From a virus: a stretch of 41,411 nt of DNA. The stretch spans positions 1 to 41,411 of the IMG/VR virus record IMGVR_UViG_3300037882_003012; one strand, 5' to 3'. The notes below the pieces were generated by a model. That model searched no databases and was not told where the DNA came from. It was given only the letters and a program-made list of their open reading frames with translations. Below, piece by piece: positions 16,818-19,454 of the stretch (its first letter is position 1; every line of letters begins with the position of its first letter). Position numbers and translations under genes: made by a program.

Positions 16818-17387
16818 TCAAGTACAAAAAACGCCTGCTGTGCTGATTTCGAATCCTGTCTTGCGTCCTGTGTTAAGGAAACGCTGAGTCGAGTAAGCAA
16901 GGTACGAAGAAACCACGGAAATGAAAGGCAAATGCTTTCCATCCTCACACGTAGCCGCTCCACCTGACTCACTATCGATTTTGAAAGACTCGTCCCAAAC
17001 TACCCTCCCAAAGGCTCCGTCCGCTGCTAGCGCCCCATGAAGGCACGGGATACCGTTGGTCCGTACGAAATCCTGGATAACTTGGCGGGACGCCCCGTTG
17101 TCCAAGCAGTCAAGGACTAGGTCAGATTTTCCAATGATCTCTTTGACGTTACCTCGATCCAACCTGTGTGGGATGGTTTCAACCCTAAGCCCCCACAAGA
17201 ATTGCATCACCTGCTGCAAGGCTAGGACCTTGGGTTTACCTACCGATGACTTGGCATGGAACTGACTTTGAGTATTTTTGGTCTCAACTCTATCCATATC
17301 TACAACTCGGATCTTCGCGTCGTTACGCAACAGCGGGACGACGTGGGAACCAAGGGCACCTACGCCCACGATAGTAACGGTCTTCAT
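16818..17387 (-). CDS. ThiF/E1-like adenylyltransferase
   Basis: Encodes 189 residues from ATG at 17387. E1-like enzymes adenylate the C-terminus of a ubiquitin-like or sulfur-carrier protein. The N-terminal Rossmann motif IVGVGALGS binds ATP; VVDMDRVETKNTQSQF is the DxD...N-Q segment, with the usual Arg (NLxRQ) replaced by Ser; VGKPKV and VLDCLDN follow. The catalytic-Cys loop is not obvious: candidates are C127-like PCLHG and the C-terminal GVFCT. At 189 residues it is a minimal E1. It closes a unit with a JAMM peptidase and a putative Ubl upstream, the classic prokaryotic Ubl trio. Confidence 0.85.
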   Translation of the reverse strand: MKTVTIVGVGALGSHVVPLLRNDAKIRVVDMDRVETKNTQSQFHAKSSVGKPKVLALQQVMQFLWGLRVETIPHRLDRGNVKEIIGKSDLVLDCLDNGASRQVIQDFVRTNGIPCLHGALAADGAFGRVVWDESFKIDSESGGAATCEDGKHLPFISVVSSYLAYSTQRFLNTGRKTGFEISTAGVFCT

Positions 17388-17389
17388 TT

Positions 17390-17548
17390 TTAGTCCAGTT
17401 CTCCTGCCATCTTGGCTGAGACATAGTCAGAATACTTAGAGCACTCAGGGCATTCAGCACACTGTCTGTAAGGGTTGTCAAGACAACTTTTTGTGAGGTT
17501 GTTCCGATACCATTTCCAGTACTTGCAGTGTTTGACCTGAGTTTTCAT
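17390..17548 (-). CDS. 52-residue Cys-rich protein
   Basis: ATG at 17548, TAA ending 2 nt before the E1-like start. The sequence begins MKTQVKHCKYWKWYR and contains five Cys, of which CAECPEC gives two CxxC-type pairs, so zinc or a disulfide is probable. It is too short for the usual length filters but fills the gap between two coupled genes. Placed between the E1-like and Ubl-like genes, it may be an accessory of that system. No family recognised. Confidence 0.6.
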   Translation of the reverse strand: MKTQVKHCKYWKWYRNNLTKSCLDNPYRQCAECPECSKYSDYVSAKMAGELD

Positions 17549-17549
17549 G

Positions 17550-17813
17550 TCAATCCCCGAATGGGGTTTTTGGACGGAGACTAATGAGGTTAAAGGGCCT
17601 TACATCGTTCGCCGCAAAGCGGTCAACTACGAAGTCGGTGAAGTCCGCCGTTTCCGAGGCTGAAATACCCGGTATTCCTCCGCTCCGGACGGCTTCCGTA
17701 GCCCACGTACGGACATCACTGTCCGTTGAGTCGTACGAGACCAAGTCGGGCAAGTCCCCGTTCTGACCATTAAAAGTGACATTCAAACGCGCTTCGATTG
17801 TTTCCATGTTCAT
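17550..17813 (-). CDS. Putative ubiquitin-like protein
   Basis: Encodes 87 residues from ATG at 17813, overlapping the JAMM stop (ATGA). The start RLNVTFNGQNGDLP is compatible with a beta-hairpin, followed by a helix (SDVRTWATEAVRSG) and strands, ending RPFNLISLRPKTPFGD. Size, the strand-helix pattern, a near-terminal Gly and the E1/JAMM context fit a prokaryotic ubiquitin-like protein; Gly-Asp at the end could be trimmed by the JAMM enzyme to expose Gly. Sequence similarity alone is not decisive. Alternatively it is an unrelated small adaptor. Confidence 0.45.
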   Translation of the reverse strand: MNMETIEARLNVTFNGQNGDLPDLVSYDSTDSDVRTWATEAVRSGGIPGISASETADFTDFVVDRFAANDVRPFNLISLRPKTPFGD

Positions 17814-18217
17814 TCCCCTTTGTACGACAGGCTTCTTAGCTGCTTCAACCAAGACGGGTTGGCTTGAAATTTGTAGTCATCTTCCCAAGGACGAATCCTA
17901 GTATACTGATATACCCCTGGACCATCCCACATAAACGTAGACAGGTAGGTTTGAGTGCAAATCCACCAGAGAAGTCTCTTACCTAAGCCAGCCTCAACGG
18001 CGGCGAAGGTAGTCAAATCCTCCAGCGAAGGGGAAGGGGAAGGATTACTAGTCCCGGGGTGGCTGTGAGCGAAACCTAGGACATCTTTACGATTCTCCCA
18101 GATGATTGCCCAAAGATCCCTGGAATCAGGAAGGTACGTGTCATTACGGCCCGGAGGTAGATGCCAGTAAATTGGTTTCCCTTTAAGATTTACAAGTACC
18201 CCAGTCTCAACGCTCAT
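17810..18217 (-). CDS. JAMM/MPN (JAB) zinc metallopeptidase
   Basis: Encodes 135 residues from ATG at 18217 in an ATGA overlap with the previous gene; the TTG at 18259 is not needed. FAHSHPG at 49-55 supplies the two zinc His (H51, H53). After a spacer three residues longer than canonical, PSLED gives S64 and D67, completing HxH...SxxD. An upstream Glu (WENR, about 41) could be the catalytic acid. JAMM enzymes cleave isopeptide or C-terminal bonds of ubiquitin-like proteins. Phage JAMM domains also occur in tail peptidoglycan hydrolases, but the E1-like neighbour and the lack of NlpC/P60 favour a Ubl role. Confidence 0.85.
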   Translation of the reverse strand: MSVETGVLVNLKGKPIYWHLPPGRNDTYLPDSRDLWAIIWENRKDVLGFAHSHPGTSNPSPSPSLEDLTTFAAVEAGLGKRLLWWICTQTYLSTFMWDGPGVYQYTRIRPWEDDYKFQANPSWLKQLRSLSYKGE

Positions 18218-18495
18218 TTGAGTACTTCCCCAAGTATCTTGACAAAGCCTCTCATACAAGCGTCACGAGACGCAAGGACTTTCTCGTAAACGGTCGGATT
18301 TTCTGCTTGGGCGATCTCAAGTAACCGTTTTCTAGCTAGGTGCCCGATCAAAGATCGGCTATCCGTGCTCTCCGCAGACCTTACAATAAGCTCTACTGCG
18401 AGTTCGTCCGCTTGACTTTGCCAGTAACTAAACGGTTGCCCGTTATACATAGACCTTTTTTCAATAATGGAATAGAAATCTTCTGATTTGTCCAT
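18214..18495 (-). CDS. 93-residue helical protein in the Ubl-like operon
   Basis: ATG at 18495 with AGGTTAG upstream; its stop overlaps the JAMM start. It is predominantly helical and charged (DELAVELIVRSAES, SLIGHLARKRLLEIAQAE) with a single Cys (RDACMRG). That Cys could in principle be a thioester site, but no E2 motif is visible. The operon position suggests a partner of the JAMM/E1 pair. Family not recognised. Confidence 0.65.
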   Translation of the reverse strand: MDKSEDFYSIIEKRSMYNGQPFSYWQSQADELAVELIVRSAESTDSRSLIGHLARKRLLEIAQAENPTVYEKVLASRDACMRGFVKILGEVLK

Positions 18496-18497
18496 AA

Positions 18498-19454
18498 CTA
18501 ACCTACATGTCTGAAAACGACTAGTTTCCCCAAACGGTCAGCCTCCAGTATAACCGAGGGGAGGCTTTCAAGGGTGAAGAAAGTATCGCCTTTCGTCCCC
18601 TGCTCAAAATCTCCTTGATCATACTCGGCGGTAAGACAAATGCCCGAGTCTGTAATACGTAGGTTTGAATCACAAACACACTCAAACCTACGGTTTAGAA
18701 GTCGGAACCGAACTACCTTTTCGCCTCGGGTATAGGAGTCACGATGATCCAGGTAAACTGCACCACCTACTGCCAAGGCTGCCTTTGCGGCCTCTCCAAA
18801 ATCAACCCGAGCCATTTGCCGCCGGCTCGCTGCGTCTCCTAACTTTTCGACTAAGTCTCTCCTACGTTCTTCAGCTCTACGTCGCTCTTCTTCGATAAGA
18901 CGGAGTCTCTCATTCTCGGCACGCCTCTTGACTGCTTCCGTTCTCTGCCACACTTCCATACGAAAAGCTGCGTCCAGGGCCGGGGGGACCCCCTTTACAT
19001 TGTCTACCGAATCCTTTTTGTCCAAGTAAGCCTGGAGGACGTCGTCCTCCGGACCGATTGGCATTTCCATGGATTCGTAGATAAGGGGGCCCCCTTCGTG
19101 TATACGCCCAGCTAGGACCCTCACGAAACGGTCTAAACCAGGCTCTATGAAATGCACCCGTTCCGCTACGGCGTGAATACGGGCGAGGTCCGGGTCTACT
19201 TTTGCACCATCAGGAACAATATGATCCCCGACCAGGTACCCTCTAACCTTGAGCGTCAATAACTCAGGACGAGGGTCCGACGATTGTACCCACTTGGCCT
19301 TTCGGCCAGAAAGGCTGAAGGTTTGCCAGCCATGCTCGACTGGAAACTTACCTTCCAAGTGCCAAGTGCGATCCTTAGACCGAAGGGGCTTACCACCAGT
19401 CCATGGGAGTACGATAGACTCGTCTTCAGCCTGCAGTAGATCTCGCCAGCCCAT
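18498..19454 (-). CDS. 318-residue protein opening the Ubl-like operon
   Basis: ATG at 19454. N-terminal domain of about 140 residues, rich in beta and Trp (LPWTGGKPLRS, GWQTFSLSGRKAKWVQ). A central coiled coil of about 55 residues follows (KRRAENERLRLIEEERRRAE onward). The C-terminal domain has a pair of Cys (FECVCDSNLRI) and a beta-rich end (FFTLESLPSVILEADRLGK). No Shine-Dalgarno; a promoter TTGCCT-N17-TATTTT ends 6 nt before ATG, so the transcript is probably leaderless. It is the first gene of the JAMM/Ubl/E1 unit and could be its substrate, adaptor or E2 substitute. I do not recognise it. Confidence 0.7.
   Translation of the reverse strand: MGWRDLLQAEDESIVLPWTGGKPLRSKDRTWHLEGKFPVEHGWQTFSLSGRKAKWVQSSDPRPELLTLKVRGYLVGDHIVPDGAKVDPDLARIHAVAERVHFIEPGLDRFVRVLAGRIHEGGPLIYESMEMPIGPEDDVLQAYLDKKDSVDNVKGVPPALDAAFRMEVWQRTEAVKRRAENERLRLIEEERRRAEERRRDLVEKLGDAASRRQMARVDFGEAAKAALAVGGAVYLDHRDSYTRGEKVVRFRLLNRRFECVCDSNLRITDSGICLTAEYDQGDFEQGTKGDTFFTLESLPSVILEADRLGKLVVFRHVG

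What the first reader, a model, noticed from the sequence alone, without database searches (positions are those of the whole stretch)
16818..19454. Phage E1-like, JAMM and putative Ubl operon
Five genes linked by overlaps encode an E1-like enzyme, a Cys-rich miniprotein, a possible ubiquitin-like protein ending PKTPFGD, a JAMM peptidase, a helical protein and a large opener protein. Such trios occur in bacterial conjugation-like systems, including anti-phage ones; here it is in a phage. It could mark virion or host proteins, or counter a host Ubl defence. No canonical E2 is seen, and the E1 NLxRQ Arg is Ser.
Basis: partly seen in the sequence, partly recalled or inferred. Interest (0 to 1): 0.72.

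Follow-up and report, generated by a model that had tools for sequence, protein, structure and literature searches.

The report
Phage ubiquitin-like operon with Y RNA
A huge bacterial virus carries a compact gene set that looks like a stripped-down ubiquitin-tagging pathway joined to a Ro60-like RNA-binding protein and its own Y RNA, usually set among dozens of tRNA genes and also found in some bacterial chromosomes, which suggests a link between protein tagging and tRNA care that nobody seems to have described.

Summary
E1, JAMM and the 87-residue protein are real. The last is predicted with confidence as a beta-grasp fold (pLDDT 91) and ends in a near-invariant ..KTPFG followed by 0-61 unrelated residues, like a Ubl precursor that is trimmed. 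The conserved unit in about 50 huge-phage contigs has five proteins in fixed order: vWA/TROVE(Ro60)-like, a new family 'P6' with an invariant Cys, JAMM, Ubl, E1. The Cys-rich mini-protein and the 93-residue helical protein are not conserved. (1) The vWA gene. (2) A Y-RNA-like RNA just 3' of E1 (window 16621-16760, minus strand), with compensatory changes in 21 of 23 pairs over 46 sequences. (3) tRNA arrays around the module (7.5 against 0.55 tRNAs per 10 kb in the same phages). The same five genes with the RNA also sit in Myxococcota chromosomes. Best reading: a Ubl-activation/conjugation pathway attached to a Ro60-Y RNA particle, acting in tRNA surveillance or repair. The chemistry, the E2-like role of P6 and the substrate are inferred. 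It is not PRTRC, CBASS, Bil or Bub. Main rival: Ubl-borne sulfur relay to tRNA.

The parts
16621..16760 (-). Y-RNA-like (YrlA-type) non-coding RNA: 10-bp outer stem GGUCAGGUUC/GAACCUGACC, 8-bp inner stem CAAGUGCU/AGCACUUG, head with T-arm placed before D-arm (permuted tRNA), then GAUUUUUA
   Evidence: Rfam RF02553 30.1 bits, E 0.0019, below gathering 69; fold -51.4 kcal/mol, z -3.65; homologues and covariation
16818..17387 (-). E1-like adenylating enzyme, 189 aa; catalytic-type Cys147; Arg of NLxRQ lost
   Evidence: ThiF 1.1e-24; MoeB profile alignment places C147 at the MoeB/ThiF Cys; residue tally
17390..17548 (-). 52-aa Cys-rich ORF, not conserved in relatives
   Evidence: no family hit; absent between Ubl and E1 in relatives, no conserved cluster
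17550..17813 (-). ubiquitin-like protein, 87 aa, ends RPKTPFG|D
   Evidence: AF2 model pLDDT 91.3, bb-a-bb; beta-grasp structural hits; tail tally
17810..18214 (-). JAMM/MPN+ metallopeptidase
   Evidence: Prok-JAB 1.2e-5; E, HxH, S, D invariant in 50/50; Rpn11 motif alignment
18214..18495 (-). 93-aa helical ORF, not conserved in relatives
   Evidence: no family; no conserved cluster among 68 loci
18498..19454 (-). P6 family, 318 aa: N-terminal beta (tandem-OB-like) part, long helix 158-203, C-terminal a-b-b-b-b-Cys273-a domain; candidate E2-like or Ubl-acceptor protein
   Evidence: AF2 pLDDT 87.8; G271, C273, D290 invariant in 55 rows; no Pfam family
19539..21437 (-). vWA protein with Ro60/TROVE-like layout, 632 aa, intact MIDAS (D425, S427, S429, T488, D515)
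   Evidence: VWA_2 7.8e-7; hhalign to true TROVE proteins 95.7%; invariants
16131..16202 (-). tRNA-Val(aac) just 3' of the module
16464..16526 (-). tRNA (Rfam RF00005, 43.8 bits) just 3' of the module

Best explanation
A ubiquitin-like activation/conjugation pathway built around a Ro60-Y RNA particle, working on tRNA quality control or repair. Proposed cycle: (1) the JAMM enzyme trims the Ubl precursor after ..KTPFG; (2) the E1 adenylates that Gly and probably loads it on Cys147; (3) the Ubl passes to the invariant Cys273 of P6, which acts as an E2-like carrier or is itself the first target; (4) the vWA/TROVE-like protein, held by its Y RNA with a permuted tRNA head, brings in misprocessed or cleaved tRNA and its protein partners; (5) JAMM can reverse the tag. 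Huge phages would keep it to look after the large tRNA set they bring; some Myxococcota keep it in the chromosome. Shown here: gene content and order, catalytic residues, predicted Ubl fold, precursor-like tail, RNA structure by covariation, tRNA-array setting. Inferred: steps 1-5 as chemistry, the E2-like role, the tRNA substrate.
For: Fixed order of five genes, 43/49 phage loci, despite gaps of up to 5.7 kb, and tight chromosomal operons (L126-L128). JAMM catalytic E/H/H/S/D 50/50; E1 N38, Q42, K53 47/47 and C147 in all 45 rows that cover it. Ubl beta-grasp model; Gly kept in 49 of 50 and then 0-61 unrelated residues: 11 end at it, 19 have one more. P6 G271/C273/D290 invariant in 55 rows, Cys also kept in Myxococcota and cyanobacterial relatives. 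vWA vs TROVE proteins 95.7%. Y-RNA-like model: full-length matches of 45 bits or more in 36 of 71 module loci (30 not in training), none in 20 control stretches of the same phages; 21 of 23 pairs with compensatory change. tRNA density 7.5 vs 0.55 per 10 kb; 468 of 482 tRNAs on the module strand. RtcB in the same window.
Against: No reaction is shown. P6 is not an E2 by sequence and no E2 stood out in the fold searches. The E1 is short and lacks the Arg finger. Pfam TROVE does not match these vWA proteins, and the N-terminal part alone reaches only 37%. Divergent relatives (L050-L059, cyanobacterial plasmids) have E1 + P6 (+JAMM) without an adjacent recognisable Ubl. Two of ten phages and two of five chromosomal loci lack nearby tRNAs.
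Confidence: 0.5

Rival explanations
1. Sulfur relay to tRNA: the Ubl is a sulfur carrier (Urm1/ThiS-like) that E1 turns into a thiocarboxylate after JAMM trims its tail; P6, with OB-like parts and an invariant Cys, uses the sulfur to thiolate tRNA.
For: tRNA-array setting; the E1 core is closest to MoeB/ThiF/UbaA models; tail trimming by a JAMM is known from siderophore and thiamine-type pathways (established knowledge); OB-like hits for P6.
Against: No rhodanese, cysteine desulfurase or PP-loop thiolase among the recurrent neighbours. The tail ends in PFG, not GG. A vWA/Ro60-like protein and Y RNA are not needed for thiolation.
Confidence: 0.2
2. Plain protein-modification system whose tRNA and Y RNA neighbours are passengers: phages keep tRNA arrays as a landing zone and the RNA serves another purpose.
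For: Many tRNA-rich stretches collect homing endonucleases and other cargo; two phages have the array elsewhere.
Against: The RNA and vWA gene recur with the module in phages, in Myxococcota chromosomes and in part in LR756511 and cyanobacterial relatives.
Confidence: 0.15
3. Counter-defence: the phage module strips or diverts host Ubl tags such as those of CBASS, Bil or Bub.
For: Phage location; JAMM; E1 related to defence E1s.
Against: A complete and chromosomally kept pathway with its own Ubl and RNA is more than a decoy needs; the fixed tRNA/Y RNA link is unexplained.
Confidence: 0.06
4. Virion or tail assembly use, as for lambda TAPI/TAPK (Ubl plus JAB).
For: Ubl + JAMM in a phage; a weak PHROG 'tail' hit for the JAMM, E 0.006.
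Against: An E1 is present, no tail genes recur beside it, and it occurs in chromosomes without visible phage genes.
Confidence: 0.03

Closest known systems
PRTRC / type 6d operons (Iyer 2006, PMC1779556): Ubl, JAB, E1, E2, alpha-helical protein
   Same: E1 homologous to PRTRC ThiF (hhalign 98.5%); Ubl + JAB + E1 in mobile elements; several PRTRC protein C also carry an extension after ..TKG
   Different: No detectable similarity of Ubl, JAMM or P6 to PRTRC C, A, B, E, F; vWA/Ro60-like protein and Y RNA instead
Ro60 (Rsr)-YrlA RNA particles, with RtcB-type RNA repair
   Same: vWA protein aligning with TROVE proteins; Y-RNA-like gene with permuted tRNA head; RtcB elsewhere in the window
   Different: Pfam TROVE not matched; operon with E1, Ubl, JAMM and P6 is new to me; RNA scores below the YrlA gathering threshold
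CBASS Cap2/Cap3, Bil, Bub
   Same: E1 core and JAMM
   Different: E1 not fused to an E2; no cyclase; separate families
FtsH/vWA-MoxR ternary conflict systems with a Ubl pathway (PMC7159879)
   Same: vWA plus JAB, E1, Ubl
   Different: no MoxR, FtsH, RING or canonical E2 in the five-gene unit
Lambda TAPI/TAPK
   Same: Ubl with terminal Gly plus JAB in a phage
   Different: no E1 there; tail context

Membership tests
Ubiquitin-like beta-grasp modifiers | beta-grasp fold (bb-a-bb) | tested here: met
   pLDDT 91.3 with that order of elements; top structural hits are mostly UBL, PB1, RBD, GB1, ubiquitin, SUMO1, at weak Z 4-5
Ubiquitin-like beta-grasp modifiers | C-terminal Gly, exposed or precursor | tested here: met
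   Gly in 49/50, tails 0-61 residues
Ubiquitin-like beta-grasp modifiers | E1-dependent activation | not testable with these tools
   needs biochemistry
E1/ThiF/MoeB superfamily | Rossmann ATP site, N..Q, K, D, catalytic-type Cys | tested here: met
E1/ThiF/MoeB superfamily | Arg of NLxRQ | tested here: not met
   Ser/Ala/Gly in 47/47
JAMM/MPN+ | Glu, HxH, Ser, Asp metal/catalytic set | tested here: met
   50/50
E2 (UBC) enzymes, for P6 | catalytic Cys | tested here: inconclusive
   C273 invariant, but catalysis is unproven
E2 (UBC) enzymes, for P6 | E2 sequence profile | tested here: not met
   hhalign to UBE2D2/UBE2I and PRTRC B under 1%
E2 (UBC) enzymes, for P6 | UBC/RWD fold | tested here: inconclusive
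   order a-b-b-b-b-Cys-a; an RWD-type chain, CENP-O, only at Z 3.9, tied with unrelated rows
PRTRC system | homologues of PRTRC A, B, C | tested here: not met
   TIGR03738 absent
PRTRC system | adjacent ParB-related gene | tested here: not met
   none among recurrent neighbours
Ro60/TROVE proteins | vWA domain with MIDAS | tested here: met
Ro60/TROVE proteins | TROVE (HEAT-ring) domain | tested here: inconclusive
   Pfam none; hhalign 95.7% whole, 37% for the N-terminal part alone
YrlA Y RNA (RF02553) | Rfam gathering score | tested here: not met
   30.1 against 69
YrlA Y RNA (RF02553) | stem carrying a head with T-arm before D-arm | tested here: met

The most novel reading that the evidence does not exclude
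A ribonucleoprotein-guided ubiquitin-like system: a Ro60-Y RNA particle directs Ubl conjugation (via a new E2-like family, P6) to tRNA-bound or tRNA-cleaving proteins, giving phages and some bacteria an RNA-addressed protein-tagging pathway.
Probability: 0.25. Interest if true: 0.96.

Novelty: new variant of a known kind. Interest (0 to 1): 0.85.

Why it matters
It would join two ancient systems, ubiquitin-like modification and Ro60-Y RNA particles, in one small operon, and offers concrete partners (Ubl, E1, JAMM, P6) for a bacterial Y RNA beyond RNA processing enzymes. It names two protein families absent from Pfam and an RNA family below current thresholds, and makes tests of RNA-linked Ubl tagging, and of why huge phages carry tRNA arrays, straightforward.

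Tried and rejected
Filing as PRTRC: only the E1 is related. P6 as a canonical E2: no sequence support, no E2 listed by Foldseek/VIA; the best structural rows were Mpa tandem-OB domains at Z 5.5 for residues 12-140, too weak to claim. Pfam/PHROG/PADLOC/NCBIfam gave no family for Ubl or P6. Raw YrlA hits are not evidence by themselves in tRNA arrays, because tRNA-tRNA junctions mimic them and 12 of 14 control genomes ring; hence the own model with control stretches. First pass at TROVE comparison used a wrong reading frame for one row and was redone. Full-text searches found no report of this module; most subscription papers are not held, so absence is weak.

Full report
What is in the window. 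Reading the minus strand, the order is vWA protein (21437-19539), P6 (19454-18498), a 93-aa ORF (18495-18214), JAMM (18214-17810), Ubl candidate (17813-17550), a 52-aa Cys-rich ORF (17548-17390), E1 (17387-16818), a Y-RNA-like gene (16760-16621), and two tRNAs (16526-16464, 16202-16131). The record is a 41,411-base virus fragment.

Conservation. The closest named relatives are Virus Rctr197k (E1 50% identical) and the 595-kb LR756511. IMG/VR scans gave 58 loci by E1 and 34 by P6, mostly on contigs of 100-620 kb. Over 68 non-redundant loci only five families recur widely: E1 63, P6 62, vWA 54, Ubl 50, JAMM 50; no other genuine gene family passes 17 (cluster 7, at 22 loci, and clusters 5-6 read as other-frame translations of these genes). 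The 52-aa and 93-aa ORFs do not recur. Order is vWA>P6>JAMM>Ubl>E1 on one strand in 43 of 49 loci, the rest lacking an end member within the fetched stretch, although insertions of up to 5.7 kb separate members. Order kept despite insertions argues for a functional unit.

E1. ThiF family, 1.1e-24. Over 47 phage rows N38, Q42 and K53 are invariant and Cys147 is kept in all 45 rows that reach it; the Arg of NLxRQ is Ser, Ala or Gly in all. The MoeB alignment puts C147 at the ThiF/MoeB cysteine.

JAMM. The Glu, HxH, Ser and Asp are invariant in 50 of 50.

Ubl. The 49-row alignment gave a confident bb-a-bb model. Foldseek and VIA rank mostly beta-grasp chains (UBL, PB1, RBD, protein G, ubiquitin, SUMO1) at weak scores, so the fold is supported by its topology and by the company of its hits rather than by one strong match. 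The tail is the best single clue: KTPFG in 37 of 50 and close variants in the rest, then 0 to 61 residues that share nothing; 11 proteins stop at the Gly and 19 carry one extra residue, as here. That is what a precursor trimmed to its Gly would show, and a JAMM gene lies next door. Each group-A phage searched whole has a single copy.

P6. No Pfam family. The model has a beta-rich N-terminal part, a long helix 158-203 and a C-terminal domain a-b-b-b-b-Cys273-a; G271, C273 and D290 are invariant in 55 rows. The motif GxCL before a helix recalls E2 enzymes, and P6 holds the place an E2 would hold, but sequence profiles give no support and fold searches are inconclusive. I treat 'E2-like' as a hypothesis.

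vWA protein. vWA with an intact MIDAS. Against real TROVE proteins from Myxococcota hhalign gives 95.7% in the TROVE-to-vWA order, but 37% for the non-vWA part alone, and Pfam TROVE does not match. Ro60-like is likely, not proven.

RNA. cmscan suggested a YrlA-like RNA at 16655-16749, below threshold. The sequence folds into a 10-bp outer and 8-bp inner stem carrying a T-arm followed by a D-arm, z -3.65. The same layout lies just 3' of E1 in relatives. A covariance model from six of these found full-length matches of 45 bits or more in 36 of 71 module loci, about 26 of them within 1.5 kb 3' of E1 (my count), and in none of 20 control stretches from ten of the same phages; matches include the Myxococcota chromosomes, where the RNA sits directly upstream of the vWA gene (L126, L127, L130), and LR756511. 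Over 46 sequences 21 of 23 pairs show kept pairing with both sides changed. That alignment was fitted to the model, which favours the structure, but the six-sequence alignment, not fitted, already had 16 of 23. The outer stem is 8 bp or longer in 34 of 46, against a mean of 5.5 bp after shuffling the ends.

tRNA setting. 46 phage loci hold 482 tRNAs, 468 on the module strand. In ten huge phages module stretches have 7.5 tRNAs per 10 kb against 0.55 in control stretches; two phages are exceptions. A cyanobacterial megaplasmid with P6, E1, a vWA protein and a CCA-adding-type nucleotidyltransferase has 26 tRNAs.

Cellular copies. 16 of 377 genomes of the phylum of a Sorangium-type MAG hold the Ubl. 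About half are phage-like; others are divergent and lie on contigs of 0.33, 1.19 and 3.22 Mb as tight operons with all five genes, without visible phage genes around. In the E1 tree the five chromosomal copies form one clade beside or within the phage group; the direction of transfer is open.

Reading. A Ubl pathway (trimming, activation, probably transfer) combined with a Ro60-Y RNA particle, in a tRNA-rich setting, in a phage that also has RtcB. I put 0.5 on this as a Ubl-modification pathway tied to RNA care and 0.2 on a Ubl sulfur relay to tRNA. The system works like other prokaryotic Ubl operons but fails membership of PRTRC and is unlike CBASS, Bil and Bub in make-up. Knowledge of Ro60, YrlA, Urm1 and E1 chemistry beyond cited papers is from memory.

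Noticed in passing
L004 12206-12570: A huge-phage contig carries a full bacterial class A RNase P RNA (299.5 bits, E 5.5e-97) within its tRNA array, near the module.
   Followed up: no
L053 3793-7119 and L055 3541-7998: A second, different E1 operon in the same phages: E1, a Ubl ending GGR/GGGK (ThiS/Mut7C-Ub hits in L053), a 507-569-aa coiled-coil protein (with a CWGN motif in L053), a JAB-like protein, and in L055 a MoxR-like ATPase and DUF2201 vWA protein.
   Followed up: partly
L126, L127, L128, L129, L130: Chromosomal Myxococcota copies of the operon (all five genes found in L126, L127, L128, L130), a compact form for experiments.
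   Followed up: partly
L097 3595-8570; L096 2659-4352: Cyanobacterial plasmids with P6 and E1 relatives but no recognised Ubl; L097 adds a vWA protein, a CCA-adding-type nucleotidyltransferase and 26 tRNAs.
   Followed up: partly
window 29971-34689: A 1572-aa ORF: methyltransferase (DUF6094) and SNF2 helicase parts with a Hint/homing-endonuclease insert, apparently an intein in the helicase P-loop.
   Followed up: no
window 9078-9890: LAGLIDADG endonuclease ORF just after RtcB (9897-11303) and near GroEL (7092-8681).
   Followed up: no
window 21545-21612: Weak RAGATH-18 match (27 bits, below 44.9) just upstream of the vWA gene.
   Followed up: no
L051 6909-7763; L053 1309-2133: SPFH/band-7 proteins next to divergent P6-JAMM-E1 modules, by eye only; such proteins are linked elsewhere to RNA repair.
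   Followed up: no
window 22770-23570: VanW/G5 protein with a signal-like start on the opposite strand, upstream of the module.
   Followed up: no
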